Source of the DNA: Selenomonas sp. oral taxon 920
GTDB taxonomy: Bacteria; Bacillota; Negativicutes; Selenomonadales; Selenomonadaceae
NCBI RefSeq assembly: GCF_001717585.1
Contig: NZ_CP017042.1
Location: 1,890,501-1,954,500 of the forward strand
Reading direction: 5' to 3'
DNA: 64,000 nt
Shown here: positions 34,065-52,004 of the stretch, piece by piece
Position numbering within the stretch: the first letter of the stretch is position 1
Layout: every line of letters starts with the position of its first letter
Program-made: the position numbers and the translations under genes
The notes under the pieces: model-generated
What the model was told of the DNA's origin: nothing
The model's input: only the letters and a program-made list of their open reading frames with translations
Database searches by the model: none

Positions 34065-34130
34065 AGCAGGGCTCCTTTCTCATCAAATTGCTCTCTCTAC
34101 TATAGCAGAAAAATCTCTTCGGCGAAACAG

Positions 34131-34163
34131 AAAAAGCGTCCCGCCGATCACAGGACGCTTTTA
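34131..34163 (-). terminator. Terminator of the methyltransferase gene
   Basis: On the minus strand AAAAGCGTCC and GGACGCTTTT form the stem with an 11-base loop, followed by T-rich sequence. It also has an A/T run on the other side. Confidence 0.85.
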
Positions 34164-34180
34164 TGATGTCGAAACGATTA

Positions 34181-34807: not shown

Positions 34808-34849
34808 GCTGCTCCTCCTTTCTGCGAATGCCGCAGCACCAATACAAAA

Positions 34850-34877
34850 GTGCCCCGTGCAAAAATGCACGAGACAC
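34850..34877 (-). terminator. Terminator of ddh
   Basis: On the minus strand a stem with core CGTGCA/TGCACG, extended by outer GTG/CAC pairs, is followed by TTTTGTATT. It stands seven bases after the ddh stop. Confidence 0.7.
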
Positions 34878-34883
34878 TGGATT

Positions 34884-35864
34884 TTACAACAAAGCCGCAC
34901 GAAGCTCCTCACCGCTCCGCGCCGAGAGATAGACAGGGGCGATGTCGAGCACGGTCTTGCAGCCCTTCATCCCCTCGGACGCGAGACGGTATGCCGCACG
35001 CGCATAGGCAGCGAGGACGCACGCCGTGAACTCGGGGTTCGAATCGAGCTTCAGGCTGAACTCGATCACATGCTTGTGTTCGCCGCCCTTGCCCGTCGCA
35101 CCGGAGCGGATGACGAACCCCGCATGGGGAAGCCCTGCGTGGTCACGCTGCAGCTCCTCCTCGCTGATGAAGTGCACCGTCGTGTCATAGTCCGAGAAGT
35201 AATTTGGCATCGTCACGATTGCCTTCTCCACGGCAGCCGCATCCGCCCCCGGCTCGAGTACGACGTAGCACTCGCGCGTATGCTTCTCACGCGTACTGAG
35301 CTGCGGATTCGCGCCGCTGCGCACAGCATCGAGCGCTGCCGGAACGGGCACGGTGTACTGCTTGGCATCCTTCACACCCGGGATGCGGCGAATCGCATCC
35401 GAGTGCCCCTGGCTGACGCCGCGTCCCCAGAATGTATAGTCTGCACCATTCGTGAGAACAGCGTTGCTGTAGACACGTGCGAGCGAGAACATCCCCGGAT
35501 CCCAGCCGACCGAGATCACGCCGATGTGCCCCGCAGCCTTTGCCGCCGCATCCACCGCCGCAAAGTGCGCGGGGATCTTTGCGTGCGTGTCAAAGCTGTC
35601 GACCACGTTGAACAGCTTGGCAAACTCCGGCGTCTGCTCCGGCAGATCGGTGGCAGAACCACCGCAGAGAATCAGAACATCCACCTTGTCCTTCCACTCC
35701 GCCGCCTTCGATGCTGCAACAACCGGCACATTTGTGCGCGGCCGCACCGATGCAGGATCGCGCCGCGTAAACACGGCGACGAGCTTCATATCTGCATTTG
35801 CCTCGACGGCGTACTCCACGCCGCGTCCGAGATTACCATAGCCAAGAATACCAATACGAATCAT
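34884..35864 (-). CDS. ddh: meso-Diaminopimelate D-dehydrogenase
   Basis: NADPH-dependent reductive amination of tetrahydrodipicolinate directly to meso-diaminopimelate, the one-step branch of lysine and peptidoglycan-precursor synthesis. The Rossmann motif is GILGYGNLGRGVE, followed by LCGGSATDLPEQ, SVGWDPGMFSLARVYSNA and WGRGVSQGHSDAIRRI. Length (326 residues) fits the Corynebacterium enzyme. The ATG at 35864 has GGGAGGAG upstream. It probably shares a transcript with the small upstream gene at 35929, since the 64-base gap holds only two stem-loops and no T-run. Confidence 0.94.
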   Translation of the reverse strand: MIRIGILGYGNLGRGVEYAVEANADMKLVAVFTRRDPASVRPRTNVPVVAASKAAEWKDKVDVLILCGGSATDLPEQTPEFAKLFNVVDSFDTHAKIPAHFAAVDAAAKAAGHIGVISVGWDPGMFSLARVYSNAVLTNGADYTFWGRGVSQGHSDAIRRIPGVKDAKQYTVPVPAALDAVRSGANPQLSTREKHTRECYVVLEPGADAAAVEKAIVTMPNYFSDYDTTVHFISEEELQRDHAGLPHAGFVIRSGATGKGGEHKHVIEFSLKLDSNPEFTACVLAAYARAAYRLASEGMKGCKTVLDIAPVYLSARSGEELRAALL

Positions 35865-35876
35865 AAAAACTCCTCC

Positions 35877-35930
35877 CGCCATCCCCCAGATGGCGTAAAA
35901 CCTTTGGAGAAACGGCACGTGCCGTTCCTC
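35877..35930 (-). promoter_or_regulatory. Two stem-loops between the 104-residue protein gene and ddh
   Basis: One is the 16-base palindrome AACGGCACGTGCCGTT, extended by GAG/CTC, at 35907-35930 at the end of the upstream gene. The other is CGCCATC/GATGGCG at 35877-35895, next to the ddh ribosome-binding site. Neither has a T-run. Confidence 0.4.
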
Positions 35931-36243
35931 AGTAATGCGGGTGTGCCTTCACATAGTCGACCGGCCGCGACCAGTCCACCTGTACCCCCGTTTCATTCCA
36001 CAGGCGCGTGAGCGCAAGCTCAAAACTCTCCCGATCCGCGAGTGGGGTGACGGTCTCCTTCGTGAAGTCCATCAGTGTCTCATGCGGCACCTCGACCTCA
36101 TGATCCTGCGCGAGAAAGGCCTCCGCCGCCGCGCGGCCCTTTTCATCCGCGAGATTCACCGTCGCCACGCGGGATGCCGCATCATAATCAATCCAGCCAA
36201 GAACGTCGCCATAGCTGATGGCGACACTGTATGTATCACTCAC
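35929..36243 (-). CDS. Small conserved-looking protein of unknown function
   Basis: An acidic soluble protein of about 104 residues, ending WSRPVDYVKAHPHY. It has an N-terminal beta-rich stretch (YSVAISYGDVLGWIDYD) that could fit the small DUF2442-like fold, but this is only a resemblance. The GTG at 36243 is preferred because AGAGGTG lies six bases upstream; another GTG at 36252 falls inside that motif. Upstream are a promoter (36329-36357) and a leader stem-loop (36264-36292). Function not assigned. Confidence 0.7.
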   Translation of the reverse strand: MSDTYSVAISYGDVLGWIDYDAASRVATVNLADEKGRAAAEAFLAQDHEVEVPHETLMDFTKETVTPLADRESFELALTRLWNETGVQVDWSRPVDYVKAHPHY

Positions 36244-36263
36244 TCGTATCACCTCTTATATTC

Positions 36264-36292
36264 GTCAGTGATAAATTTCTTTTATCGCTGAC
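36264..36292 (-). promoter_or_regulatory. Leader stem-loop before the 104-residue protein gene
   Basis: GTCAG-C-GATAAA and TTTATC-A-CTGAC form a 12-base stem with one mismatch and a 5-base loop. It ends about 10 bases before the ribosome-binding site. Not a terminator. Confidence 0.45.
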
Positions 36293-36328
36293 CCCTTTGG
36301 ATATATCCTGCCCCTGTGGGTGTTCCTT

Positions 36329-36357
36329 ATTATAGAACGATTCGCATACATACGCAA
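36329..36357 (-). promoter_or_regulatory. Promoter of the small protein gene and ddh
   Basis: On the minus strand TTGCGT (36352-36357), a 17-base spacer and a perfect TATAAT (36329-36334). Confidence 0.6.
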
Positions 36358-36379
36358 CTACCCGCTGAAAATAATTCTG

Positions 36380-36410
36380 TATACAGAAAGAGACGGCCCC
36401 AAAGCCGCCC
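36380..36410 (-). terminator. Terminator of autotransporter 1
   Basis: On the minus strand GGCGGC/GCCGTC forms a 6-bp stem with one G-T pair, followed by TCTTTCT, about 25 bases after the autotransporter stop. Confidence 0.6.
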
Positions 36411-36434
36411 CCTTCTCAAACATCAATACACTCC

Positions 36435-39400
36435 TCAGAACGCCCAGTTGATCTGAACGCCGCCGGAGATTCCCCTGCGCTTGCCCGTCATGCCCATGAG
36501 GCTCATGCCGTAGCTGACGTTGCTGGATTTCGGTGCAAAACGGTAACCGAGTTCCAGAACTCCCGTGCTGCCCTTCAGGCTCGGACTCGGTGTGGAGTAG
36601 TCGCCGAAAGTTGCACCCGCATCGCTGCCGAACTCGTACTCGTACGCAAGTCCCGTGTAGAACGCACCGCCTCCATTGAGCTTCTTCGTATAGCGTGCAC
36701 CGATGCGGAGACGGCTCGAATTCACCGCGTCAAAGTCATAGACCTCGCCCGTATTCAGCTTCACCGTATCGCCGCCCTGATGCGAGTAGAAATACTTCGC
36801 ATAGGTGTCGATCGTGTCGCCGCCCTTCAGCTCCTTCTCCCGTCCAACGCCGATATGCGCCGCGTAGTAGGTGCTGCTGCTGTCGTAGGTGGCAGTGGTA
36901 TTGGAGATATCGCCCGCATAGTCACTCTTGACGCGTCCTGCACGCAGGCTGCCCTCGACATATGCACCGCTGTCGCTCTTGGACACTGCCATGACACCCA
37001 CACCGACATGGCTCATCGAGCCGTCGCCGTGCGTGCCGTCGTCCAGATAGGAGTCGTACGTGCCGCGTCCGTATTCGATGAACGGTCCGTAGGTGACGGT
37101 GTTCCGTCCCATAGTTGTCTGCTTTGCAAAACCGAGGTTGAGGTTCCATCCCTTCGCGTCAACATACGAGCCGGAGTTCAGGCGCGTCGCAGACCCGCTC
37201 TGTGCCGCCCACATCTGGAAGGCGCTGCTTGCTGCTGCGGATGCCGCCGATGCCTGTGTGCCGGCGTTTGCCGTAGATTTTGCGGCAGGGGCGTGGGCGG
37301 CTGCGGATACGGCATTAATCGCCGCACCGATGCCGCTGTCGGCGAGGAGGTCGCCGCTGCTGTTGATCATGGCGGTTGCCGCGACTCTGGTCTCGACAAG
37401 AGACTTCGTCTGATCATTCACGGAAACATCGCTCACCTCGGCGACAAGCTCATTCTTCAGATGGGTTTCATTCTTGGTGTGCGGATCTGTCTCGTTCTGT
37501 GCCTCACGCGTGAGCAGGTTGAACTTGTAGCGCAGGCTGATGCCGTGCATGCCCTCTGCGTCGCTGACGCTCGGCGCGTTTATGATCTCGACTGCCTGGT
37601 TGTCGCTGCCGTCCACCTTGTATGCCTTCATCAGGCTGACCGTGTCGCCGACGTTCAGCGTCGGGCGGCTGCCCGCAAGTCCGACGCGGACGTTGACATT
37701 GCTCAGATTCTTCTTGTCGTCGTGCGACAGTTCTCCTACGTTCGTCAGACGGAGCATCGTCGCTGCTGCGGGATCCGCCGTTGTCCCCTCCGGAATGTAG
37801 AAGTGGAGGTTCTGTACGCCGTCAAAATCCTTCGCCGTCGTGCCGAACGAACGCACCGCGAGTGTGTTGTCCGTGCTGTTCGCATTGCCTGCGCCGCCGT
37901 GGATCACGCCGCCGATTGTGACACCGTGATAGAGATTCACCGTATTGTTCGATGCTGCGCCGTTCGTTGCGCGTCCGCCGTAGACATCGCCCGTCACCCT
38001 GCCGCCGAAGATGTCGACCGTGTTGTCCGTCGCCGTCGTGCCGAAGCCGCCGACGAGTTCGCCCGCCGAGCCGCCCTGCAGGACAAGCGTGTTCTTCTTT
38101 GCTGTGTTCGTACGCGATGTGCCGCCGTACGCCGTACCTGTAATTTCACCGCCCGTCATCGTGAGCGTATTCTCCTCGACCACGTTGCCAAGCTCCGAGC
38201 GACCCCCCCACGCGGAGTCGTGCGTATTGTCCGACGCCGCATAGGAGACTTCGTTGCCCTTGAAACGATAGGTGTCCGTGTAGACGCTGTTGTTGTCTTT
38301 ATCGGTAACGAACTCGAATACATCGCGCGTCTCACCCTTTGCGCCGTGATAGGTCGCACCGAAGTCAATGCCGTTCGCATTCGCCATCAGCGTGATGCGC
38401 GACGCGCCGTAGCTGCTCACCGTCATGTTCGTAGGATCGACCGTCGCCGTTACCTTCGACCAGTCAAGCCCCGTGGTCTGTGCACCGCCATTCAGCGAAA
38501 GGAGTGTCTTGCCCGCCGTATCCTTGTTCACGGCGAAGTTCAGCTTCTCAAAGTTTGCAATCTGCCCTGCCGTAATCGCGCCGCGCACATTCAGCGTATT
38601 GCCCGTCACATGATCGGACTTGCTGCCGCCGTAGATTGTGCCCGTGACTTTCGTGCCATCCGCGACCGCATGGAATGCACCGTTCTTGTCGGTATAGCCG
38701 ATATTCACGATGTTGCCCGTGGTCTCACCCGTGCCGCTCGTATAGCCGCCGTAGACATTCTGTGCCGTGCCGCCCGCAATGTTGACCGTGTTGCCGGTCG
38801 CATTCGCGGCATTCGTTGCCTTGCCGATGTAGCCGCCATACACCTCTTCGAGCGTACCTGAGCCCGTGCCGAGGAGGTTCACGGTGTTGTTGACCGCGCC
38901 GCCCGCCGTGCCCTCCGAACGTCCACCCGAGAGGTAATCAACGGTATTACCCGAGGCAATGCCCGTAAGCGTCATTATATTTTTCTCTGCCGTATTGCCG
39001 CCGTAGGAAACACCGGCATAGGTCTTGGCGTTTGGATTGACACCGTCATAAATGACATCGCCATTCTTGAAACGGTTCACGTCAATAAGGACAGCGTTCG
39101 CCACGCCCGTATTTGTATCCGTACGCTGAACGACTTCGTAGTCGCCGCTCACCGCATGATTCTTTGCCGCGTAGTTCGAGAACTTCAGCTCGTTCGCCGC
39201 CGTACTCTTCATCAGCGTGATCGCGCCGAGCGTCTTGTCGGCGGAGAGCTTCGACGTATCGACCGTAACCTTGTTCCAGTCTGCCGTCTGTCCGTCAAAC
39301 CCATTCGCAAGCGTCAGCATCGTGCCGCGGCTCGTAGTATAGGTATCGTCAACCGTGCCGCTCGACGGCTTGTCCGCCGCAACGGAGTTCGTCAGATAGA

Positions 39401-42400
39401 ACGTATAGTTCTCGAAGTTCTGCGCCTTCTTCGCCGCAGCATCCTTTACCGTGATATTCAGCGTATTGCCCGAGGCATCGGACTTGTTGCCGCCGTAGAG
39501 TTCAGCAGCAGTAAAATCTGTTCCCGCCGCGAGCGTCGAGGTATCGCCCTGACGCAGCGTCGTCGGATCCGCGCCGATGTTGACTGTATTGTTTGTAGTC
39601 GCACCGCCGCCATTCGTGTAGCCGCCGTAGACCGCGCCCGTAACCTTACCGCCCGAGAGCGTGACTGTGTTGCCCGTCACATCACCGCTGTTCGCAGCCT
39701 TATCAACGTAGCCGCCATAGACGTTCGTCAGCGTACCTGCGCCCGTCCCCGTGACCGTGACCGTATTCTTGATCGAGCCGCCTACCGTGCCCATCGTCTT
39801 GCCGCCGTATGCACTGTGCGCACCTGCGGCGAGACTCTTGACCGTCAGCCGATTGCTCTCCGTCGTATTGCCGAAATGAGAAATGCCGCCAAGTGCCTCG
39901 CCCGTCGTCGCGGCGGTAAAGTCAACCACGCCGTCCTTGAAACGGTTTGCATCGAGGTAGATCTTGTTCGCCGTCGTGCTGCCGACATGATTTGTGCGCA
40001 GACCGTACTCCATGCCGTCATGGACGCTGAGGAGACGCTGATTTGCCGCGCCCGTGAATGTCATGCCTGCGGCATTGAGCAGCGTGATGGTATTCGTGCG
40101 CTGTTTGCCCACACTCCATGCGTGAAGCGTCTCTCCGTCGAGGTTGATTTTCGACCAGTCTACGTCATCACCGTCAAATCCGCCCGCCTGCGCGAACGTC
40201 AACAGCGTATCGCCGTCCTTTACATCATTCCCCAAATAGAAAGTATAGTTCTCGAATTTGCCCGCCGTCTTGACGGTCATATCCTTTCCCTTGACATTCA
40301 GCGTGTTGCCCGTCACATCGCTCCGATTACCGCCGTAGATGGAGGTACCCGAAAGATCGGCACCCTGAGCAAGCCCCGTGCCGTTCCCGAGGTTCACTGT
40401 ATTGTTCGTGGTCGCACCGCCGCCGTCTGCGTATCCGGCGTAGACCTTATCCGTCACCTTGCCGCCCGTCAGCGTCACTGTGTTGCCCGTGGCATCGCCG
40501 CCGTTATTTGTATAGCCGCCGTAGACCAGACCGTTAACGACGCCGCCCGTCAGCGTCACTTTATTGCCCGTCGCCGCGCCACCGTCATGCGTGTAGCCGC
40601 CGTGGACATCATCGCTGCTCGTGCCGCCCGAGATCATGACCTCATTGTTCTGCGCCGCGCCCTTGCCCTTGGTATGACCGCCATAGAGCCGGTTGTATGT
40701 ACCGTTTTGGATCGTGACCTTGTTGCCCGTGACAGCGGCCGTGCTGTCCGCATTGTCGATGGCACCGCCGTAGACATCGCCCGCTGTGCCATTCTCAAGC
40801 GTCACTGCATTGCCCTCGCCGTCCGCACTGCCGCCGACCGCGCCCTTGCCCCGCGTATAGCCGCCGTAGACCGTGCTAGTACGACCATTTTTCAGCGTGA
40901 CACTGTTGCCTGTCACCGTGCCCGTAGCGTTCTTCTTATTCGTGACCGCACCGCCGTGGACGTAGGAGAGTCCGCCGCCGACCCCCGTATTCTCGACAAC
41001 GACGCGGTTGTTCTTGGAACCGCCCGTGCGTCCTGCCGTCTTGCCGCCGTAGGTATTGCCCACCCACTCCGTCGTGGAGGTGTTCGTGATCGTGAGCGTA
41101 TTGCTCTCCGTCGTGTGGTTGTTGTAGGAGACACCACCGAACAGTTCCTTCGCATTCGGCGGATTCGTACCGTTATACGTCCACGTATTTCCCTTGAAGA
41201 TATTGTACCCCATGATGACGGAGGAGCCTTCACGTTCCCCCGTATCAGTGCCGACGAAGTACTCGACATTGTCCGTGCTGCCGAGATCGCGGGACTGATA
41301 GCCCTGTTTGAACTTCAGCATCCCCGTCGCGCTCTTGACAAGAGTAATAAGGCCGGTTGGTTTTCCCGTCAGCTTCGATGTATCCAGAACGAAATTATTC
41401 GCAAAGTCGATCTCCCTGCCAAAGCCGCCGTTCTCCAGCGTCAGCATCGTGTCGCCGTCTTTGATGTTGTTGTTCAGCGTGAACTTATACTTGTCAAAAT
41501 TATCCACGCTGTAAACCTTGACGCCCTTGGCGCGGACGTTCAGCGTATTGTTGTTCACCGCACCGTCCGTGGAGTTGTCGCCGTGAATATTTGCCTTGGT
41601 GAGGTCTGCCGTATAGGTGCCGTCCTCTGCACCAAGATTCACCGTATTGTTCGATGCGCTGCTGCCGGCAGCCGTCATCTTTTTGCCGCCGTAGACATCG
41701 GCAGGGGTGAAGCTGCCTACCGTGCCGCCCGAGATCGTGACTGTGTTGCCCGTCGCCGCCCCCTTGGCGCTGAGACCGCCATAGATCTCCCTCGTCACCG
41801 TGCCGCCCGTGAGGTTGACCGTATTGTTCTTCGCCGCACCTGTACCATAGTTCTGCCCGCCGACCGCATACTCCACCGTGCCCTGCTTCATATTGACGAT
41901 ATTGCCCGAAACCTCGCCCGCATTGTCTGCGTTCGTGATTTTACCGCCGTAGATATCCTTGATCGCGGAAGTGTTGGCGGGGAGTTCGAGCGTCGCCGTA
42001 TTGTCTTTGACATCACCTGTCGCTCCCTCGTTCTTGCCGCCGTAGGCATAGGAGAGCTGTGTGCCGGACGCAGGCAGCCCCGTCACCGTCAGCGTGTTGC
42101 CCGTCGTCGTATGACCAAAGCGGGAGAGTCCGCCGTAGACCTCGCCGCCGAAGGTCGGTGTTGTACCGTCATAGGTGACATGACTGTCCTTGAATCGGCT
42201 CGCCTCCAGCATGAGGGCGTTCGCCGTACCTGTGCCATTATTCGTAACAAATCTGAACTCATGCGTCTCGGTAGCCGTCGCCGCCTCACCACGTGTCGCA
42301 TAGTTTTGGAACGTCAACGTATCGGTATCATTGCTGCGCTTCAAAAGGGTCATGCGCTTGATTCCGTGCTGCGTCGCGAGGTAGTCCGCCGACAGCCCCG

Positions 42401-45191
42401 TGCGATCGACAGTGATCTTGTCCATGTCAACGCCCGTGCCTACGAAGTCGCCCGCATTGGTGACGGTCAGCATTGTATCGCCGAACGCAGTTGCGCTGTT
42501 CAGTTTGAATTTGTAGTTCTCGAAATTGTTGACGGACTTCGCCGCAGCATTCTTGGCGTTGACGCTGAGTGTATTGCCCGTCACATAATCGCCTGTCCCC
42601 GTCCCGTTTCCGCTGTATTTTCCGCCATAGATATCGGCATTCGTAAGCGTTGTACCCGAGAGATCAGTATGCGTGTCATCGCCAAGGTTGACGGTGTTGC
42701 CCGTCGCCGTGCCATTCAGCTTCCACGACACGCCGCCGTAGATATTGCCGCTGAATGTGCCGCCCGCAATCGTGACGGTATTGTTGTTTGCAGCAAAGTT
42801 CTGCGCGGTATAGGCAGAACCGTTATCGCCGCCCGCACCGCCATAGACATGGTCTTGGAATGTGCCGCCCGTAATCGTGACCTTGTTGCCCGTCACCGTT
42901 CCGGACTTATCTGAATAGCCGCCGTACACGCGCTTTTGGAACGTACCGTCCGAGATATTGACGATATTCCCCGTCACCGTTCCGGCAGTATCCGCATAGC
43001 CGCCATACACGGCTTCCTCGAGTGTACTGCTGCCCGATACTGTGATCGTATTTCCTGTTACAGTACCGCTTGCACTGCTGTATCCGCCGTTGACAGACTG
43101 CTTGATCGTACTGCCCGAGATCGTGATCTCATTGTCCGAGGCAGTTCCGTCGCCCGTCATATGTCCGCCGTTGACGATGCCCTCGACGGTACTTCCATTC
43201 GTGATGGCGACAATATTCCCTGTCGCCTTTCCGTTTGCGCCCGAGGACTGTCCGCCGGAGATATTTTTCTTGACCGTACCGCCCGTTACCGTGACCTTGT
43301 TTCCGGTCACAGTTGAATCGGCTCCTCCGAGCACGCCGACGATATGCCCCTCCACTGTACCGCCCTCGACGCGGACTTCGTTGCCCTCAGCCGTGCCGCT
43401 GCCGTCCAGCTTGCCGCCGTAGACCGACCAGTCAGCATGTCCCTTGACGGTGAAGATATTGCGGTTCACATTACTTTTTGCCCAACCGGCATATGAGCTG
43501 TTGTCCACCCAGCCGCCCGTCTCGACGGTGACGGTATTGCCCTCTGCCTTGCTGTCTGCCGCCGTCGCATAGCCGCCGTACGCCGCCTTTACCTTGCCCG
43601 TCGCTGTGATCGTGACATGGTTGTTCGTCGCATTGCCGTCTCCCGCCGTGTAGCCGCCGTAGACACTCAGATTCGTGTTGTTCGTATTCGTGATCTTGAT
43701 TTTGTTGTTCGTCGTCGTATTGCCGAGACTCGAATAGCCGCCGTAGACCTCTGTGCCTGTGACGTTGTCTGCCGTCGCGTCGACGTTTTGGAAGCGGTTC
43801 ACTTCGGCTGTAACATCCGTCGTCAGCGTCCTTGTGGGGAAAAGCATCGACGGCGTTGCCGTAATGTTGTACTCGAAATCACCGCTCGATCCTGTTTTTG
43901 CCGCATAATTATTAAAAACGATATCCGAGCCAGAATTGGAATGCATTAGTGTTACAGTTCCAATTTTCCCGTACTTCGTTGTGTCTACTGCCCATCCAGA
44001 CAAGTCTAGATTCAGTTTATTCCAGTCAGCACCGCTGCCAAGATTCCCCGAACCAAGCGTAAGCATCGTATTTCCTGCTTTAATCGGAGCAGTCAGATGG
44101 AAATTGTAGCTCTCAAAGTTTCGTATTTTTTCAACTTCGACCCCCTTTGCATAGACATGCAGCGCATTTCCGGTAACATCACTGGTTCGATTCCCACCAT
44201 ATACCTCGACACGCTTCATTCCCGTTCCTGCGGTATAAACACCCTCCGCAGTGCCGAGATTCACAACATTGTTGATTGTTTTTCCCGTTCCTCCGGAGTA
44301 GCCGCCGTAAATCTTCCCGCTGGTTGTCAGAACAGCCTGGCCGCCGAGCGTCCCCCCCGATATGGTAACGGTATTGCCCGATACCGTACCAGAGCCATTC
44401 GAATAACCGCCATGAATATTTCCTCCAGCAGATGTGCCGATTATCCCCCCCGATACCGCAACCGTATTTCCCGATACATCACCGTTGCCCGCGGTATACG
44501 CACCGTATACGTTCGTATTTCCTTTGCTGAGTGTACCGCCCGAAATCGTCAGCGTATTGCCCGTGACATCTGAACTGTTCGACGCGTTTGTGACAACACC
44601 GCCGCCAGCCTCATCCTTGAGTGTGCCGCCCGTGATGGTGACAGAGTTGCCCGTGACCGCCCCCGTTCCTTGCGTCACGCCGCCAAAGGCATCACCCTCC
44701 ACGGTGCCGCCCGCGACCGTGACCGCGTTGCCCGTGACAGCCTTTGTCGCGGACGCGCCATTAAAGCCGCCATAGATAGGATCCTTCGACAGCCCGTTAT
44801 TGAAGAACACTTTATTGCCCGTGACTGCGCCTGTTCCGCTGACACCGCCGTAGATCATGCTCTGCCCGCCGCCGTTGCTGACCCGAAGGCCATGAATCGT
44901 GAGCGTATTGCCCGTGACATCCTCTGTCGCATTCTTCTTGCCGCCGCCGGAGATTGTTCCCCACGTACTAAACGGAACATTGGGTGTGCCTGGCGTCCCA
45001 ATCGTGATATTGTTATCACTCATTGAGTTGGTCTTGTTCGTACCCTCAAGACCACTGATGGTGGTTGCCGTCTCCGTGTAGTCATGCGCTGCATACGCCG
45101 TCGAGGCATCCAAAAAGGCACCGCTGCCGGCAGACAGGCCAAGAGCTACATACAAAGCCAACCGCCGTTGTGCTTTCAATCCATTGAACAT
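36435..45191 (-). CDS. Giant autotransporter 1 with nested passenger repeats
   Basis: A type Va autotransporter of 2918 residues. The signal peptide (basic MFNGLKAQRRLALYVALGL, cleavage near AYA-A at about 35) is followed by a passenger of about 2600 residues and a C-terminal beta-barrel of about 261 residues (2658-2918, from AFQMWAAQSGS), ending in the outer-membrane signature INWAF. The passenger has short units of the form GNTVTISGGT...VYGGYT (20-30 residues), probably a beta-solenoid. These are grouped into larger modules, each marked by an NFExYxF motif (near residues 358, 889, 1232, 1646, 1928 and 2213, with a variant near 2457) and an xRFKxxxVxYDG motif. No protease triad was recognised; adhesion is plausible. 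AGAGGAGGAG precedes the ATG. Paralogue of the gene at 46167-51743. Confidence 0.93.
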   Translation of the reverse strand: MFNGLKAQRRLALYVALGLSAGSGAFLDASTAYAAHDYTETATTISGLEGTNKTNSMSDNNITIGTPGTPNVPFSTWGTISGGGKKNATEDVTGNTLTIHGLRVSNGGGQSMIYGGVSGTGAVTGNKVFFNNGLSKDPIYGGFNGASATKAVTGNAVTVAGGTVEGDAFGGVTQGTGAVTGNSVTITGGTLKDEAGGGVVTNASNSSDVTGNTLTISGGTLSKGNTNVYGAYTAGNGDVSGNTVAVSGGIIGTSAGGNIHGGYSNGSGTVSGNTVTISGGTLGGQAVLTTSGKIYGGYSGGTGKTINNVVNLGTAEGVYTAGTGMKRVEVYGGNRTSDVTGNALHVYAKGVEVEKIRNFESYNFHLTAPIKAGNTMLTLGSGNLGSGADWNKLNLDLSGWAVDTTKYGKIGTVTLMHSNSGSDIVFNNYAAKTGSSGDFEYNITATPSMLFPTRTLTTDVTAEVNRFQNVDATADNVTGTEVYGGYSSLGNTTTNNKIKITNTNNTNLSVYGGYTAGDGNATNNHVTITATGKVKAAYGGYATAADSKAEGNTVTVETGGWVDNSSYAGWAKSNVNRNIFTVKGHADWSVYGGKLDGSGTAEGNEVRVEGGTVEGHIVGVLGGADSTVTGNKVTVTGGTVKKNISGGQSSGANGKATGNIVAITNGSTVEGIVNGGHMTGDGTASDNEITISGSTIKQSVNGGYSSASGTVTGNTITVSGSSTLEEAVYGGYADTAGTVTGNIVNISDGTFQKRVYGGYSDKSGTVTGNKVTITGGTFQDHVYGGAGGDNGSAYTAQNFAANNNTVTIAGGTFSGNIYGGVSWKLNGTATGNTVNLGDDTHTDLSGTTLTNADIYGGKYSGNGTGTGDYVTGNTLSVNAKNAAAKSVNNFENYKFKLNSATAFGDTMLTVTNAGDFVGTGVDMDKITVDRTGLSADYLATQHGIKRMTLLKRSNDTDTLTFQNYATRGEAATATETHEFRFVTNNGTGTANALMLEASRFKDSHVTYDGTTPTFGGEVYGGLSRFGHTTTGNTLTVTGLPASGTQLSYAYGGKNEGATGDVKDNTATLELPANTSAIKDIYGGKITNADNAGEVSGNIVNMKQGTVEYAVGGQNYGTGAAKNNTVNLTGGTVTREIYGGLSAKGAATGNTVTISGGTVGSFTPADVYGGKKMTAAGSSASNNTVNLGAEDGTYTADLTKANIHGDNSTDGAVNNNTLNVRAKGVKVYSVDNFDKYKFTLNNNIKDGDTMLTLENGGFGREIDFANNFVLDTSKLTGKPTGLITLVKSATGMLKFKQGYQSRDLGSTDNVEYFVGTDTGEREGSSVIMGYNIFKGNTWTYNGTNPPNAKELFGGVSYNNHTTESNTLTITNTSTTEWVGNTYGGKTAGRTGGSKNNRVVVENTGVGGGLSYVHGGAVTNKKNATGTVTGNSVTLKNGRTSTVYGGYTRGKGAVGGSADGEGNAVTLENGTAGDVYGGAIDNADSTAAVTGNKVTIQNGTYNRLYGGHTKGKGAAQNNEVMISGGTSSDDVHGGYTHDGGAATGNKVTLTGGVVNGLVYGGYTNNGGDATGNTVTLTGGKVTDKVYAGYADGGGATTNNTVNLGNGTGLAQGADLSGTSIYGGNRSDVTGNTLNVKGKDMTVKTAGKFENYTFYLGNDVKDGDTLLTFAQAGGFDGDDVDWSKINLDGETLHAWSVGKQRTNTITLLNAAGMTFTGAANQRLLSVHDGMEYGLRTNHVGSTTANKIYLDANRFKDGVVDFTAATTGEALGGISHFGNTTESNRLTVKSLAAGAHSAYGGKTMGTVGGSIKNTVTVTGTGAGTLTNVYGGYVDKAANSGDVTGNTVTLSGGKVTGAVYGGYTNGGGATTNNTVNIGADPTTLRQGDTSTLAAGTDFTAAELYGGNKSDASGNTLNITVKDAAAKKAQNFENYTFYLTNSVAADKPSSGTVDDTYTTSRGTMLTLANGFDGQTADWNKVTVDTSKLSADKTLGAITLMKSTAANELKFSNYAAKNHAVSGDYEVVQRTDTNTGVANAVLIDVNRFKNGDVIYDGVNPNAKTYAGVSYGGNTAEKNIMTLTGIASGNTVDYLSGGRSEGTAGGAVNNTVNLLGTGSGTLEEVYGGYIGKATNAANATGNTVNIAGGTAQNVYGGYTSGTGETTGNIVNIGYTDKNGAFHAVADGTKVTGTIYGGSKSDHVTGNTLNVRGAITAGQIANFEKLNFAVNKDTAGKTLLSLNGGAQTTGLDWSKVTATVDPTNMTVSSYGASRITLMANANGIDFGATYHGAKGETRDVFEFVTDKDNNSVYTDTYRFKGNEVSYAASDNTHDSAWGGRSELGNVVEENTLTMTGGEITGTAYGGTSRTNTAKKNTLVLQGGSAGELVGGFGTTATDNTVDIFGGRVTGDVYGGRATNGAASNNTVNLYHGVTIGGVIHGGAGNANSTDNTLAVRSFGTTAKDFDGVQNLHFYIPEGTTADPAAATMLRLTNVGELSHDDKKNLSNVNVRVGLAGSRPTLNVGDTVSLMKAYKVDGSDNQAVEIINAPSVSDAEGMHGISLRYKFNLLTREAQNETDPHTKNETHLKNELVAEVSDVSVNDQTKSLVETRVAATAMINSSGDLLADSGIGAAINAVSAAAHAPAAKSTANAGTQASAASAAASSAFQMWAAQSGSATRLNSGSYVDAKGWNLNLGFAKQTTMGRNTVTYGPFIEYGRGTYDSYLDDGTHGDGSMSHVGVGVMAVSKSDSGAYVEGSLRAGRVKSDYAGDISNTTATYDSSSTYYAAHIGVGREKELKGGDTIDTYAKYFYSHQGGDTVKLNTGEVYDFDAVNSSRLRIGARYTKKLNGGGAFYTGLAYEYEFGSDAGATFGDYSTPSPSLKGSTGVLELGYRFAPKSSNVSYGMSLMGMTGKRRGISGGVQINWAF

Positions 45192-45289
45192 AGGCTCCTC
45201 CTCTAATCCTTAGACAAAAAGTCTCGATTCCGTCACAGAAATGCTTTTACATATCTCATTGTAGATTGAGATTCATTATATGTCTATTT

Positions 45290-45319
45290 ATGATACATGA
45301 GCCCTATTGTCATTGTCAA
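45290..45319 (-). promoter_or_regulatory. Candidate promoter of autotransporter 1
   Basis: On the minus strand a perfect TTGACA (45314-45319), an 18-base spacer and TATCAT (45290-45295), about 100 bases before the start codon. Confidence 0.6.
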
Positions 45320-45470
45320 CGCTATTTCTAATTTATTATCCTTCTTATTGAATAAAATTTAACAAAGCGTGAATAAAAGGCCATCATTTTACTTTTATAT
45401 ATGAATCATCTTTCATATTTGTGTGTGCTGCAACACTTCCATGCACAAAACGCCGCAATTCGGATTCTTC

Positions 45471-45499
45471 TGGACAGGTGTGCGCATTGTGCTTATAAT
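45471..45499 (+). promoter_or_regulatory. Promoter of the thioesterase gene
   Basis: TGGACA (45471-45476), a 17-base spacer and a perfect TATAAT (45494-45499), about 50 bases before the start codon. Confidence 0.75.
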
Positions 45500-45550
45500 A
45501 ACTGTAGTATTTCAAATAGGCAAACGTATTATCAAAAAGGAGCAGTTCAT

Positions 45551-45952
45551 ATGGACTACACAAGCAAGATCGCCGTCGGAATGACGCATGAGGCAGTGGA
45601 TACGGTAACGGATGCGAATACGGCGGTGACGGTCGGCAGCGGCTCGCTTGCGGTGTATGCGACCCCTGCGATGGCGGCGCTGATGGAGCGTGCGGCGGCA
45701 GAGCTGTGCCAAGAGGAGTGCCCCGAGGGCTGGACGACGGTCGGCACGTCACTGAACATCGCGCACCGCGCGGCGACGCCGACGGGGCTGACAGTACGAG
45801 CCATTGCCGAGGTGACGGCAGTCGACGGACGCGCGGTCACACTCAAGGTCACGGCATACGACGAACGCGAGGAGATCGGCGCGGGCACGCACACGCGCTT
45901 TGCCGTTGCAGTGGATAAATTCATGGCAAAGGCAGAGGGAAAGCGTTCATAA
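45551..45952 (+). CDS. FlK-like hot-dog thioesterase
   Basis: A 133-residue hot-dog protein. The motif VYATPAMAALMERAA and the downstream NIAHRAATPTG place T38, E46 and H72 with the same spacing as the catalytic Thr42-Glu50-His76 of fluoroacetyl-CoA thioesterase FlK. It probably hydrolyses a small acyl-CoA; fluoroacetyl-CoA itself is unlikely in an anaerobe. The ATG at 45551 has AAAGGAG upstream. It sits alone on the plus strand between two minus-strand autotransporters and is followed by a regulator remnant. Confidence 0.85.
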   Translation: MDYTSKIAVGMTHEAVDTVTDANTAVTVGSGSLAVYATPAMAALMERAAAELCQEECPEGWTTVGTSLNIAHRAATPTGLTVRAIAEVTAVDGRAVTLKVTAYDEREEIGAGTHTRFAVAVDKFMAKAEGKRS

Positions 45953-45973
45953 TCCATCGGCAGAAGCGAGGAT

Positions 45974-46093
45974 ATGAGCGGCGTGACACAGCCCGTCATC
46001 TCCCGCGTTGAGCAGGGCACGACAAACCCGAACATTGCGACGATCCAGCTCCTCGTCTCACTTGGGAAAGAGCTCCGACAGCCCCTGCTCTAG
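45974..46093 (+). pseudogene. Remnant of an XRE-family helix-turn-helix regulator
   Basis: A 39-codon frame starting MSGVTQPVISRVEQGTTNPN and ending with LLVSLGKELRQPLL. This is the second half of a Cro/C1-type helix-turn-helix (recognition helix SQPVISRIE-like, then the TTNP turn and ATIQLL helix). The first helices, the N-terminus and any effector domain are missing. The same frame is open back to the thioesterase stop and still looks regulator-like (GRSED before the Met), so the 5' part has been lost. No ribosome-binding site is evident. It is probably non-functional, although a tiny protein cannot be excluded. Confidence 0.7.
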
Positions 46094-46103
46094 AGTACAA
46101 CAA

Positions 46104-46141
46104 GGGCGGCGATACGAAACAGAGATTTCGTACCGCCGCCC
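46104..46141. terminator. Bidirectional terminator between the regulator remnant and autotransporter 2
   Basis: 16-base arms with one mismatch (46104-46119 and 46126-46141) and a 6-base loop; the core is GGGCGGC/GCCGCCC. The T-runs on both sides are weak. Confidence 0.7.
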
Positions 46142-46166
46142 TATTCTTATGTCTTATTCGGTTTTA

Positions 46167-49100
46167 TTAGAACGCCCAGTTGATCTGGATGCCGCCGGAG
46201 ATTCCCCTGCGTTTTCCAGTCATGCCCATAAGGTTCACGCCATAGCTGACACGCTCGTCCTTCGGTGCGAAGCGGTAGCCCAGTTCGAGCAGCCCTGTGC
46301 TGCCCTTCAGGCTCGGGCTCGGCGTGGAGTATCCGCCGATGGACGCGCCGGCATCGCTGCCGAACTCGTACTCGTACGCAAGTCCCGTGTAGAATGCGCC
46401 GCCCCCGTTGATCTTCTTCGTATAGCGTGCACCGATGCGAAGACGGTGCGAGTCAATCGCGTCGAAGTCATAGACCTCGCCCGTGCTCATCTTCACCGTA
46501 TCACCCGCCTGATGCGAGTAGAAATACTTCGCATAGGTGTCGAGCGTATTGCCGCCCTTCAGCTCCTTCTCCTGTCCGATGCCGATGTGTGCAGCATAGT
46601 AGGTATTGCTGTTGTCATAGGTGACAGCGTTATTCAGGACATTGCCGCTGTAGTCGCTCTTCACGCGGCCAACGCGCAGGCTGCCCTCAACATATGCACC
46701 GCTTTCACTCTTGGACTTCGCCATGACACCCGCGCCGAAGTAGCTCATCGAGCCGTCGCCGTGCGTGCCGTCGTCGAGATAGGAGTCGTAGCTGCCTCTG
46801 CCGTACTCGATCATCGGGCCGTAGGTGATCGTATTGCGTCCTGCCGTCTTCTTCTTGGCAAAGCCGAGGTTCAGATTCCATCCCTTCGCATCGACGTACG
46901 AACCGGAGTTGAGGCGGGTCGAGGAACCGCCCTGCGATGCCCACATCTGGAACGCATTGCCCGCGGCAAGGCTCGCCGCGGCACCCGCTGCTGCATTTGC
47001 ATGAGCACTCTGTGCCGTGATGGCTTCCTCCGCCGCACGGAATCCATTCTCTGTGAGGAGATCCGCGCCGCCGTTGATCATCGCGGTGGTCGCGGCGCGC
47101 GTCTCAACGAGAGACTTCGTCTGATCATTTATGGAGACATCGGTCACCTCGGCAACAAGCTCGTTCTTCAGATGGTCTGCATTCGTGGTGTTGGCATTTG
47201 CCTCGTTCTGTGCCTCACGCGTGAGCAGGTTGAACTTGTAGCGCAGGCTGATGCCGTGCATGCCCTCTACATTGGTGACGCTCGGCGCATTCGCGATCTC
47301 GACCGCCTTGCTGTTGCCGCCGTCCACCTTGTACGCCTTCATCAGGCTGACCGTGTCGCCGACGTTCAGCGTCGGGCGGCTGCCCGCAAGGCCGACACGG
47401 ACGTGAATGTTGCTCAGATCCTTCTTGTCATTCGTCAGGTACTCCGCTTTCGTCAGGCGGAGCATCGTCGCTGCCGCAGGATCTGCCGTTGTTCCTGCCG
47501 GAATGTAGAAGTGGAGGTTCTGTACACCCGCGAAGTCACGCACCTCAGTGCCGCGCGCATGGATGGCGAGCGTATTGCCGATACCGTTCGGATTCGGCTC
47601 CGTATCCTGATGCTGGTGCGCCGAAGAATCATGGATCGCGCCGCCGAGCACGATTGCCTTGATGTTCGAACCCGCGAGGTTGATTGTGTTGTTGTCCGTG
47701 TTCGTCGTGCCAAAGCCGCCGACCACGTGCTTGACCGTATTGTCTTGCCCGACGGTGACCGCACCGATGTTCACGGTATTGCCCGATGCCGCGCCGGTTC
47801 TCGACTGACCGCCGTAGACGTTGTCTGTCACCGTACCGCCTGTGATCGTGACGGTGTTCCGAAGCGCATCTCCGCTCACTGCATCACCGCCGTTGACAAC
47901 GTGGACCGTGCCGTTTTTCATCTCAACGGTATTGTCGCTCGCCGTCGCACCGTAGCCGCCCGTGAGGTCGTCTGCTGTCGATGCCGCACCGTCAAATACG
48001 ACGGTATTGTGCTTTGCAGCACCTGTACCGCTCGTATATCCGCCGTAGACCTTATCACCGACCGTACCGCCCTCGACCGCAACGGTATTGAACGAAACAT
48101 CCGCCGCACTGGTCGTGCTGTCGATGTAGCCGCCCATGAGATCATGAAGCGTCGCGCCCTGCGAGAAGCGGAGCGTATTGCTGTGCACTGAACCCGTCCC
48201 TTTGGTGTAGCCGCCGACTGCCGTGTCAAGACTGCCCGCATTCGTATTCTGCACATCCACGTGGACATGGTTGTTCACTGCGCCGCCGTGCGCGCCCTCA
48301 GCGTACCCGCCGTAGGCTTTGAGGTTGTTCGTTCCGGTTGCAACATCCGTGATCTCGAGCGTATTGCCCTCGGCGATCGTCCCAACCGTCACTTCATGAC
48401 CGTCCGCATCGCGCTCCGTGTGGTCGTATGCAGTGTAGCCGCCGTAGACCTTAGCGGGCGCAGTCGTGCCGTTATGCGTTACCGTACCGTCCTTATAGCG
48501 GTTGAGTTCGAGCTGAACCTTGCTCGCCGTACCGCTGTTGGTGTCGGTGTGCAGCTTCTTCTCATAGACGCGGTCAAGTTCCGCCGTAGCCGTTGACGTG
48601 TAGTTGTCAAAGAGCAGATCGTCTGCGAGCGGCAGCGACGATGCACGCTGCAGGAGTGTGAGGGTATTCTTGCCCTGAACTCCGTCGCCGCGTGCTGCCG
48701 AGAGTCCCGACGTATCCGCCGTGACATTTGACCACTTGACCTTGACGTCATCGGGGGTCCCAGAGATACCACCGAAGCCGCCTGCTTCGGACAACGTCAG
48801 CATCGTATCGCTGTAGGCGTCGCCGATCTTGAAGTTGAACTTCTCGAAGTTGCGTACCTTCTTGACCGTCAAGCCTTTGCTCTGCACGTTCAGTGTGTTG
48901 CCCGTAATCTTTGCATCATTATTCGCAAAGACCTGTGCTTGATTGCTCGCGTTATAGTAAGCTGATCCCCAGACCTCAGCGCCTGTCAGTGTACCGCCGC
49001 CGAGTGTGACGGTGTTGCCATTCGAGGTGCTCGCCAAGACACGCGAATCGCCGCCGACAATCTGTCCGGAGACCGTGCCGCCCGTGATGGTGACTTTATT

Positions 49101-51743
49101 CTCGGACATATTGCCCGCCGCAGTACTCGTTCCACCGCCGCCGATCACGTTCGCAACCGTACCGCCCTCGACCGTGACTTCATTGCCCGTCGCCGAGCCG
49201 TTCGCACCCGAGACCGCACCGCCCATGGCATTTGTCACCGTGCCGTCCTTGATGATGACGCGGTTCTTCTCTGCAACGCCATTGGCAGCACCGGTGAATC
49301 CACCGTTAATGTTCACAATCGAGCCGGTACCCGTGCTCTCGACAATGACGCGGTTCTCCTTGGAGTCGGCTGCGCCGTTGGTCTTGCCGCCGTAAACGAA
49401 GTTCAAGTTCGTCGACGGAACGCCCGTCACCGTGATCTGGTTGTTGTAAGTTGTATGATTGTCGTCATATGAGATGCCGCCCGCGACCTCATTCACCGTC
49501 GACGGGTTCGTGCCGTCATACGTCCACTCGCTGTTGCGCCAGCGGTTCGTGCGCAGCTTAACCGTGGTCGCGGACTGCACCGTGCCCGCCCCCTTGTCTG
49601 TATCGGTGCGCATAACGGCTTCGTAGTCGGAGTTCGGATCGGTGATGAAATTGCGGACATTGTAGTTCGAGAACTTGAGCTCGTTCGCCGCATTCGATTT
49701 GAGCAGCGTAACCTCACGATTCGGCCGCACGGCACTAATCAGGCTCTCCGCAAGAACCTTGACCTTCTCCCAGTCCACCGTTCTGCCGAGGCCGTCGTTA
49801 TTGACGGTCAGCATGGTCGAGCCGTCTGTGATGTCATCATTCATATGAAAGTTGACGTTCTCGAAATTGTGGACGCTCTTGACGACGGCATTCTTCGCCT
49901 TGACATTGAGGGTATTGCCCGTTGCCGCCTTGTTGCCGCCGGAGATGTTGCTCGCCGAGAGCGTCGTGCCCGAAAGGTCATGATGCGCGTCGTCGCCGAG
50001 GTTGACCGTGTTGTTCTCTGTCGTGCCGTCCGCTTTCCACGAGTATCCGCCATAAATATTGGAGCTGAACGTACCGCCCGCAATCGTAACAGTATTGTTG
50101 TTTACCGTAAATGTCTCTGTGCTGGAAGGATCACCACCCGCACCACCATAGATGACATTTTGGAAGGTACCGCCCGTAAGCGCAACCTTATTGCCTGTCA
50201 CCGTTCCGGACTTATCCGAATATCCGCCGTAAATGGTTTCTTGGAACGTGCCGCCTGCAATGGCAACGCTATTATCCGTCACCGTTCCAGTATTATTGGA
50301 ATAGCCGCCGTATATCGTGTTCTCGACAGTACTGCTGCCCGATACGGTGACGGTATTCCCCGTCACACTGCCGTTTGTGGAATCATATCCGCCCGTTATG
50401 GCTTTTTTAATTATACTGCCCGAAATGTTGATCTGGTTGCCCGATGCAGTACCGCCGTCCACAGTGCTTCCACCGTACACAAAGCCCTCAGCTGTACTGT
50501 CCGTAATCGTGACGATATTTCCCGTCGCCTTTCCATTGGCACCCGAGACCTGCCCACCGGTAATATCTTTCTTGACCGTACCGCTTGTAACCGTAACCTT
50601 GTTGCCGGTCACGGTTGTACCCGTTCCTCCTTTCCCACCGACGGCATGCCCATTCACAGTGCCGCCCTCGATGCGGACTTCATTGCCCTCTGCCGTGTCA
50701 CCGGCGTCATCGATTCTGCCGCCATAGACCGACCAGTCAGCATGCCCCTTGACGGTAAAGATGTTGCGGTTCGCAGCACCCTTTGCCCAACCGGCGTACG
50801 AGTTGTCATTGACCCAGCCGCCCGTCTCGATGGTGACGGTATTGCCCTCAGCCTTACCCGTCGCCGAATCAGCACGTCCGCCGTAGATTCCCTTCACCTT
50901 GCCTGCCGCACCAATCGTGACATGGTTGTTGACCGCATTGCCGCCTCCTGCTGCATGCGCACCATAAACGGTCAGGTCCGTATTGGTGAGATTGCTGACC
51001 GTAACACTGTTGTTTTCCGCTTTGCCGGAACCTGCAGTATATGCACCAAAAACGTTTGTGCCGCCGCTCTTCGTGAATGCGCCGCCCGAGATCGTCAGCG
51101 TATTTCCCGTGATATCCGCACTGCTCGTTGTGCTTCGTATGATGCCGCCCATCGCCTCATCTTTGAGCGTACCACCCGTGATGGTGACAGAGTTGCCCGT
51201 GACGGCCCCCGTCCCTGCCGTTCCGCCGCCCTGAACATCACCCTCCACAGTGCCGTCCACGACCGTAACGGAGTTGCCCGTGACCGCATTGGTCGCGGAT
51301 GCACCATTAAAGCCGCCGTAGATGGAATCCTTCGACAGCCCGTTATTGAAAAATACTTTATTGTTGGTGACTGCACCCGTTCCGCTGACGCCGCCGTAGA
51401 TCATGCTTTGCCCATTGCCGTTGCTGACCTGCAGTCCATGAATCGTGAGCGTATTGCCCGTGACATCGGATGCTGTATCGGTCTTTCCGCCGCCGGAGAT
51501 AATGCCGTAGGTGCTGGCCGGCTGATTCGTTACTCCCGCCGTCCCAATCGTAATCCTGTTGTCACTCATGAAGCCTGTCTGATCCGAGCCCTCAAAGCCA
51601 TTGATACTGCTCGCCGTCACGGTGTGGTCATGAGTTTCCGCTGCATGCGCAGGCTGTGCAGAGAACAGGAGTCCTCCACCCGTGGACAGTCCGAGTGCAA
51701 CATAGGCGGCCAGCTGTCGCCGAGCCTTCAATCCGTTGAACAT
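46167..51743 (-). CDS. Giant autotransporter 2, paralogue of autotransporter 1
   Basis: An autotransporter of 1858 residues. The signal peptide (MFNGLKARRQLAAYVALGLS, cleavage after AHA) precedes a passenger with the same GNTVTITGGT...VYGGxS units. Three large modules are marked by FEN/FEK motifs near residues 628 and 965 and FAGVQNLHFYIP near 1407. The beta-barrel spans about 1598-1858 and ends INWAF. The first 220 or so and the last 450 residues are nearly identical to autotransporter 1, whereas the middle differs in module number and order. The ATG at 51743 with GGAGGATC upstream gives the same N-terminus as the paralogue, so upstream in-frame starts are rejected. A strong promoter and a palindromic leader precede it. 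Confidence 0.93.
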   Translation of the reverse strand: MFNGLKARRQLAAYVALGLSTGGGLLFSAQPAHAAETHDHTVTASSINGFEGSDQTGFMSDNRITIGTAGVTNQPASTYGIISGGGKTDTASDVTGNTLTIHGLQVSNGNGQSMIYGGVSGTGAVTNNKVFFNNGLSKDSIYGGFNGASATNAVTGNSVTVVDGTVEGDVQGGGTAGTGAVTGNSVTITGGTLKDEAMGGIIRSTTSSADITGNTLTISGGAFTKSGGTNVFGAYTAGSGKAENNSVTVSNLTNTDLTVYGAHAAGGGNAVNNHVTIGAAGKVKGIYGGRADSATGKAEGNTVTIETGGWVNDNSYAGWAKGAANRNIFTVKGHADWSVYGGRIDDAGDTAEGNEVRIEGGTVNGHAVGGKGGTGTTVTGNKVTVTSGTVKKDITGGQVSGANGKATGNIVTITDSTAEGFVYGGSTVDGGTASGNQINISGSIIKKAITGGYDSTNGSVTGNTVTVSGSSTVENTIYGGYSNNTGTVTDNSVAIAGGTFQETIYGGYSDKSGTVTGNKVALTGGTFQNVIYGGAGGDPSSTETFTVNNNTVTIAGGTFSSNIYGGYSWKADGTTENNTVNLGDDAHHDLSGTTLSASNISGGNKAATGNTLNVKAKNAVVKSVHNFENVNFHMNDDITDGSTMLTVNNDGLGRTVDWEKVKVLAESLISAVRPNREVTLLKSNAANELKFSNYNVRNFITDPNSDYEAVMRTDTDKGAGTVQSATTVKLRTNRWRNSEWTYDGTNPSTVNEVAGGISYDDNHTTYNNQITVTGVPSTNLNFVYGGKTNGAADSKENRVIVESTGTGSIVNINGGFTGAANGVAEKNRVIIKDGTVTNAMGGAVSGANGSATGNEVTVEGGTVANVIGGGGTSTAAGNMSENKVTITGGTVSGQIVGGDSRVLASTSNGNTVTLGGGTLTGAEVWGSAYYNASNQAQVFANNDAKITGNTLNVQSKGLTVKKVRNFEKFNFKIGDAYSDTMLTLSEAGGFGGISGTPDDVKVKWSNVTADTSGLSAARGDGVQGKNTLTLLQRASSLPLADDLLFDNYTSTATAELDRVYEKKLHTDTNSGTASKVQLELNRYKDGTVTHNGTTAPAKVYGGYTAYDHTERDADGHEVTVGTIAEGNTLEITDVATGTNNLKAYGGYAEGAHGGAVNNHVHVDVQNTNAGSLDTAVGGYTKGTGSVHSNTLRFSQGATLHDLMGGYIDSTTSAADVSFNTVAVEGGTVGDKVYGGYTSGTGAAKHNTVVFDGAASTADDLTGGYGATASDNTVEMKNGTVHVVNGGDAVSGDALRNTVTITGGTVTDNVYGGQSRTGAASGNTVNIGAVTVGQDNTVKHVVGGFGTTNTDNNTINLAGSNIKAIVLGGAIHDSSAHQHQDTEPNPNGIGNTLAIHARGTEVRDFAGVQNLHFYIPAGTTADPAAATMLRLTKAEYLTNDKKDLSNIHVRVGLAGSRPTLNVGDTVSLMKAYKVDGGNSKAVEIANAPSVTNVEGMHGISLRYKFNLLTREAQNEANANTTNADHLKNELVAEVTDVSINDQTKSLVETRAATTAMINGGADLLTENGFRAAEEAITAQSAHANAAAGAAASLAAGNAFQMWASQGGSSTRLNSGSYVDAKGWNLNLGFAKKKTAGRNTITYGPMIEYGRGSYDSYLDDGTHGDGSMSYFGAGVMAKSKSESGAYVEGSLRVGRVKSDYSGNVLNNAVTYDNSNTYYAAHIGIGQEKELKGGNTLDTYAKYFYSHQAGDTVKMSTGEVYDFDAIDSHRLRIGARYTKKINGGGAFYTGLAYEYEFGSDAGASIGGYSTPSPSLKGSTGLLELGYRFAPKDERVSYGVNLMGMTGKRRGISGGIQINWAF

Positions 51744-51845
51744 TTGATCCTCCAACTCCTTTGATGCAAGAACGCCATTCATGACAGCAAAACCACAGAA
51801 AGCGGCGAATTGAACTGTGTCTCCTGCATACTGCCCGAACGGCTT

Positions 51846-51870: not shown

Positions 51871-51896
51871 ATAAAAAATATTTTTCTATGCTGTGT

Positions 51897-51926: not shown

Positions 51927-52004
51927 TCTCACGATGCGATTCCGTTCTGTTTTGTCTTTTTCAACGAGGATAAATGAGGCAGTATATTCTTTCCTGCATG
52001 TCCG

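What the first reader, a model, noticed from the sequence alone, without database searches (positions are those of the whole stretch)
36435..45191. Two-level repeat architecture in the 2918-residue autotransporter
Short GN-TVT-GG...VYGGY units are nested in large modules of about 240-530 residues, each with the same internal order: an NFExYxF block, a GDTMLTL segment, a 'TLMKS...L-F-NYA' segment, an RFK...VxYDG segment, then a run of YGG units. This suggests growth by whole-module duplication. The passenger may represent a distinct beta-solenoid family.
Basis: seen in the sequence. Interest (0 to 1): 0.6.

Follow-up and report, generated by a model that had tools for sequence, protein, structure and literature searches.

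The report
Mosaic adhesin built from repeated modules
A mouth bacterium (oral Selenomonas group) carries a giant surface protein, most likely an adhesin, built from six diverged copies of a large module, and related species and neighbouring genes appear to have swapped runs of these modules, with breakpoints at the conserved block that marks each module.

Summary
The two-level repeat is real. The 2918-aa ORF (minus strand, 45191-36435) has about 44 short units of about 27 aa (81 nt). These are interrupted by six full copies of a ~180-aa block (NFE..F / TMLTL / TLMKS / RFK..YDG) plus a seventh, shortened copy just before the barrel. Each block is found by a model of the other five at E 1e-24 to 6e-45. 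It is a type Va autotransporter. AlphaFold2 gives a confident beta-solenoid for two adjacent modules (pLDDT 88, pTM 0.85), with no significant PDB, Pfam or NCBIfam match.

"Growth by whole-module duplication" is only partly right. Blocks within this protein are 28-41% identical and each groups with its counterpart in other oral species, so the duplications are old. A sister protein in a relative does carry recent tandem copies of exactly 1026 nt. The present gene is a mosaic: one stretch is near-identical to Centipeda, the next to S. infelix, and the C-terminus to its own tandem paralogue. Switches fall inside blocks, three of four beside the NFE-TMLTL motif. Outside the genus the block mostly occurs once, beside the barrel, so internal blocks look like amplified copies of the pre-barrel junction domain. 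Adhesin function is inferred, not shown.

The parts
36435..45191 (-). whole ORF (2918 aa), type Va autotransporter 'Wa'
45290..45319 (-). probable sigma-70 promoter TTGACA-18 nt-TATCAT, read by eye; S. infelix has TTGACA..TATTAT at the same place
   Evidence: sequence; not tested
45087..45191 (-). signal peptide (aa 1-35, MFNGLKAQRRLALYVALGLSAG...AYAA); MFNGLKA/MLKGMKA start shared by relatives
44190..44924 (-). first run of short units (aa 90-334)
43644..44189 (-). block 1 (aa 335-516)
42597..43643 (-). run of short units after block 1 (aa 517-865); 84-100% aa identical to Centipeda
42027..42596 (-). block 2 (aa 866-1055); switch from Centipeda-like to S. infelix-like near aa 910-930
41571..42026 (-). 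run of short units (aa 1056-1207)
41034..41570 (-). block 3 (aa 1208-1386)
40329..41033 (-). run of short units (aa 1387-1621), includes an 81-nt tandem array
39792..40328 (-). block 4 (aa 1622-1800); 97% identical to S. infelix
39489..39791 (-). run of short units (aa 1801-1901)
38913..39488 (-). block 5 (aa 1902-2093)
38625..38912 (-). run of short units (aa 2094-2189)
38115..38624 (-). block 6 (aa 2190-2359); S. infelix-like identity ends near aa 2230
37875..38114 (-). last run of short units (aa 2360-2439)
   Evidence: pLDDT about 90
37404..37874 (-). block 7 = pre-barrel junction domain (aa 2440-2596); switch to paralogue-like sequence near aa 2460
37296..37397 (-). predicted helix leading into the barrel (aa 2599-2632; low confidence)
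36438..37229 (-). beta-barrel translocator (about aa 2655-2918), ends in F
46167..51743 (-). tandem paralogue 'Wb' (1858 aa from the MFNGLKA start; the ORF listing starts earlier at 51854): two full blocks plus junction and the same type of barrel; donor-like for the C-terminus of Wa

Best explanation
This is a type Va autotransporter of an oral Selenomonas-group bacterium. Its passenger is a long beta-solenoid of about 27-residue coils, interrupted six times by a ~180-residue block; a seventh, shortened block joins the passenger to the barrel. The block probably arose from that junction domain, which is single in most related genera, and spread through the passenger by old duplications of [block + coils]. 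Since then the gene has changed mainly by homologous recombination: runs of modules have been exchanged with orthologues in other oral species and with the adjacent paralogue, and deleted or reordered, with crossovers in the conserved blocks. Inferred: the protein is exported by Sec, inserted by the outer-membrane assembly machinery, and displays the rod as an adhesin in dental plaque. Each block may fold as a semi-independent unit, which would be why module runs can be swapped without wrecking the protein.
For: Two-level repeat. Barrel: sister barrels match PF03797 (3e-13) and the profile finds the BrkA barrel 3qq2 (8e-4); the model is nearest to BrkA (Foldseek 4e-11, TM 0.75 on the target). 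Solenoid: two modules at pLDDT 87.8, pTM 0.85. Old duplication. Mosaic: aa 751-900 has 95-98% third-position identity to Centipeda and aa 950-2230 mostly 75-98% to S. infelix, against 68-74% in the flanking DAP dehydrogenase gene and mostly 40-60% elsewhere in the same gene pairs; the C-terminus is about 80% aa identical to paralogue Wb against 55-70% to the orthologues. Switches at about aa 465, 915, 2230 and 2460, all in blocks, three beside NFE-TMLTL. Reordering: Centipeda has the counterparts of Wa blocks 4 and 5 in reverse order. Deletion: genome G001 keeps only aa 1-200 joined to 2268-2918. Junction origin: block profile against junction profile, probability 98.5%, E 3e-15 over 107 columns; 13 matches in 10 genomes of other genera lie directly 5' of an autotransporter barrel.
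Against: The 2918-aa protein itself scores nothing in Pfam. The C-terminal model is weak (pLDDT 59, seven sequences). No recombination-detection program was run; the mosaic rests on sliding identities. Four breakpoints are few, and the blocks cover nearly half the passenger. One genus (G029) has four internal blocks and another (G023) one, so spread of the block is not confined to this genus. No function has been tested for any member.
Confidence: 0.72

Rival explanations
1. The protein grew, and still grows, mainly by tandem duplication of whole modules within the gene, and similarity between species is ordinary vertical descent.
For: Six homologous modules exist. A congener's 4106-aa protein has successive 1026-nt modules at 88-91% nt identity, and another has a two-module duplication at 82%.
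Against: In this gene the best internal repeat is 68% nt identical and every block is closest to a counterpart in another species. Third-position identity jumps from about 50-60% to 95-98% and back within one gene pair, above the 68-74% of the flanking gene, which vertical descent does not explain.
Confidence: 0.15
2. The patchy identity reflects uneven selection: near-identical stretches are conserved for function and divergent ones are under diversifying selection, without recombination.
For: Surface proteins often evolve unevenly; identities vary along the gene.
Against: Silent third positions are also 95-98% identical in the conserved stretch. The identical partner changes along the gene (Centipeda, then S. 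infelix, then the paralogue), and block order is permuted in Centipeda.
Confidence: 0.07
3. The internal blocks are ligand-binding domains inserted into a solenoid stalk, unrelated to the pre-barrel domain; the resemblance is a shared way of starting or ending a solenoid.
For: The last third of the block (model positions about 120-184) has no counterpart in the junction domain. No solved relative is known.
Against: Profile-profile probability 98.5%, E 3e-15 over 107 columns, and the same motif order NxLxV-NFE/NFQ-TMLT-TLM/SLM. The internal-block model itself picks out the barrel-adjacent segment in other genera.
Confidence: 0.2

Closest known systems
Type Va (classical) autotransporters with beta-helical passengers, e.g. 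BrkA, AIDA-I, Ag43
   Same: Signal peptide, long beta-rich passenger, helix, C-terminal beta-barrel ending in F; the barrel matches BrkA by sequence profile and fold.
   Different: The passenger coil is about 27 aa with a YGG motif; six ~180-aa blocks interrupt it; no significant fold match in the PDB (Ag43 appears only at E 0.2).
Autochaperone (AC) domain of type Va autotransporters (PMC5767081)
   Same: Position: at the C-terminal end of a beta-helical passenger, just before the translocator.
   Different: No Pfam autochaperone match for blocks or junction, no test of chaperone function, and here the domain is repeated along the passenger.
Chlamydial polymorphic membrane proteins (PMC11166332)
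   Same: Short motifs (there GGA(I,L,V)/FxxN) mark the coils of a long beta-helix, with a separate middle domain before the barrel.
   Different: Different motifs; the middle domain there is next to the barrel, whereas here related blocks recur through the passenger.
Type Va adhesins of Fusobacterium nucleatum (Fap2, RadD, CmpA; PMC10995627)
   Same: Oral adhesin genes with mosaic structure from recombination between subspecies.
   Different: Here exchange is between named species and with a tandem paralogue, and switches fall in a repeated block. No sequence comparison was made.
Veillonella adhesin cluster (VtaA-I, VmaA-C; PMC7549365)
   Same: Negativicute autotransporters; genes in clusters with domain swaps and duplications; shown there to drive biofilm and aggregation.
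   Different: The cluster is mostly trimeric (type Vc) autotransporters, a different class.

Membership tests
Type Va autotransporter | C-terminal barrel of the PF03797 type | tested here: met
   3 of 7 sister barrels match PF03797 (best 3e-13), though this protein's own barrel does not; profile finds BrkA 3qq2 at 8e-4; model matches BrkA barrel, TM 0.75, E 4e-11
Type Va autotransporter | N-terminal signal peptide | tested here: met
   MFNGLKAQRRLALYVALGLSAG..AYAA, conserved start in relatives, by reading; no signal-peptide program available
Type Va autotransporter | Passenger folds as a beta-helix/beta-solenoid | tested here: met
   AlphaFold2 on two modules: all-beta coils, pLDDT 87.8, pTM 0.85; predicted only
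Type Va autotransporter | Passenger displayed on the cell surface | not testable with these tools
   needs an experiment
Autochaperone domain | Match to a known autochaperone family or fold | tested here: not met
   no Pfam autochaperone hit for 31 blocks or 10 junction domains; no significant PDB fold match of the module model
Autochaperone domain | Lies between passenger and barrel | tested here: met
   single copy directly before the barrel in other genera, 13 matches
Autochaperone domain | Needed for secretion and folding | not testable with these tools
   needs a deletion experiment
LOFI repeat protein (NF038205) | Score above the curated cut-off of 25 bits | tested here: not met
   15.9 bits, E 0.0097

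The most novel reading that the evidence does not exclude
Serial autochaperones: copies of the pre-barrel junction domain repeated along one giant passenger act as successive folding nuclei during export, and because each closes a self-folding unit, the same conserved motif serves as the crossover point for swapping module runs between species. That would be a modular adhesin system built on repeated folding domains.
Probability: 0.25. Interest if true: 0.75.

Novelty: new variant of a known kind. Interest (0 to 1): 0.52.

Why it matters
Very long autotransporters pose a folding problem: how does a passenger of over 2000 residues fold outside the cell without an energy source? Repeated copies of the domain that normally sits at the barrel suggest a testable answer. 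The gene also looks like a clear natural example of cassette exchange between co-resident mouth species, with crossovers at a recognisable motif; this bears on how surface adhesins diversify in dental plaque, and the module profile (A1) gives a way to find and type such genes.

Tried and rejected
Pfam and NCBIfam gave nothing for the passenger or block (LOFI repeat below cut-off). PDB sequence search with the block found only weak hits to an unrelated viral capsid/ORF2 protein. Foldseek of the two-module model against PDB and viral models found only weak beta-helix resemblances. No Rfam family in 34000-54000. tblastn of the junction domain against plasmids: none. In 398 genomes drawn across the phylum, only five genomes, all of this family, match the block at E 1e-6. 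The long ORFs antisense to the gene (1252, 693 aa) were taken as a by-product of composition: similar antisense ORFs accompany the relatives' genes. The papers I found on Selenomonas autotransporters do not describe this repeat.

Full report
WHAT IS THERE. The window lies in the genome of an oral Selenomonas-group bacterium: the closest named relatives found are Selenomonas infelix, Centipeda periodontii and Selenomonas sp. FOBRC6. The ORF 36435-45191 is on the minus strand and encodes 2918 aa, here called Wa. Just upstream lies a tandem paralogue, Wb (46167-51854 as listed; the shared MFNGLKA start puts the real start at 51743). A third, shorter paralogue (714 aa frame) lies elsewhere in the genome.

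THE OBSERVATION. Both repeat levels are real. The short unit occurs 44 times against 5 by chance, with spacing of 26-28 aa and an 81-nt period in DNA. Six full ~180-aa blocks and one shortened one lie at 245-531-aa intervals. With the other blocks masked, each block is found by a model of the remaining five at E 1e-24 to 6e-45, while 20 shuffled proteins give nothing below 3e-3.

WHAT KIND OF PROTEIN. The C-terminal barrel belongs to the autotransporter class: sister barrels reach PF03797 at 3e-13, the profile finds BrkA in the PDB, and the model, although weak overall (pLDDT 59), has BrkA and EspP barrels as best fold matches. Two adjacent modules (aa 1600-2200) are predicted as one all-beta solenoid with pLDDT 87.8 and pTM 0.85. 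No solved structure matches it significantly, and no Pfam family covers the block.

HOW IT EVOLVED, OLD PART. Blocks within Wa share 28-41% identity; Wa blocks 2-6 share 68-97% with their counterparts in S. infelix. In a tree of 115 blocks from this and related genomes, each Wa block groups with blocks of other species. So the duplications predate these species. Whole-module duplication does still happen in the family: in a congener's 4106-aa protein, successive modules of exactly 1026 nt are 88-91% identical.

WHERE THE BLOCK CAME FROM. In other genera the block model matches, with few exceptions (G029 with four internal copies, G023 with one), a single segment lying directly 5' of an autotransporter barrel: 13 such matches in 10 genomes, mostly in proteins of 670-890 aa (coordinates compared by hand). 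A profile of internal blocks and a profile of junction domains align at probability 98.5%, E 3e-15 over 107 columns. The simplest reading is that the junction domain was copied into the passenger. The direction of copying is an inference from the distribution.

HOW IT EVOLVED, RECENT PART. Along Wa the closest relative changes abruptly. Residues about 465-910 are closest to Centipeda (aa 751-900: 99-100% aa and 95-98% third-position identity). Residues about 930-2230 are closest to S. infelix, with G006 close behind. From about 2460 to the end the closest is the tandem paralogue Wb, with a paralogue of G001 close behind. For comparison, the neighbouring DAP dehydrogenase gene has 68-74% third-position identity to the same species. 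The switches at about 915, 2230 and 2460 lie beside the NFE-TMLTL motif of a block; the one at about 465 lies at the end of another block. Centipeda has the counterparts of blocks 4 and 5 in reverse order, and genome G001 has lost everything between aa 200 and 2268. These point to homologous recombination anchored in conserved blocks. No formal recombination test was run, and four breakpoints are few.

FUNCTION. Not shown. A surface-displayed beta-solenoid of this class in an oral Negativicute is most likely an adhesin: in Veillonella parvula autotransporters drive biofilm formation and aggregation (PMC7549365), and mosaic type Va adhesins are known in oral Fusobacterium (PMC10995627). That the blocks act as folding nuclei is a hypothesis from their homology to the pre-barrel domain, whose position matches the autochaperone of other autotransporters (PMC5767081); no sequence match to a known autochaperone family was found.

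VERDICT. The duplication interpretation is partly right; recent cassette exchange is the stronger result. New variant of a known kind.

Noticed in passing
L004 about 12955-13150 (same DNA in L046): In S. infelix the orthologue of Wa has its reading frame interrupted in the signal-peptide region at a run of G; it could be phase variation, decay or a sequencing error.
   Followed up: partly
L042 9643-12190; L050 9865 onward (reverse strand): The orthologue is also frame-broken near its 5' end in genomes G001 (with a large internal deletion) and G009, without a homopolymer before the stop; repeated loss of this gene is notable.
   Followed up: partly
window 45401-45952 (+): A small ORF between Wa and Wb, on the opposite strand, looks like a thioesterase-type protein by reading; it keeps this place in the relatives.
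   Followed up: no
L004 12174-12991; L006 14256-14942: A HicA/HicB-like toxin-antitoxin pair (by reading) sits between the paralogues in S. infelix and FOBRC6 and was not seen in the window.
   Followed up: no
L055 931-13248: A 4106-aa autotransporter of a congener has ten blocks, including successive 1026-nt modules at 88-91% nucleotide identity; that genome has 56 block matches in all.
   Followed up: partly
G000:C1:303751-304470, 2342211-2342918, 2366612-2367325 (outside the window; L001-L003): Three further PF03797 autotransporters in the window's own genome, one in a 3919-aa open frame.
   Followed up: no
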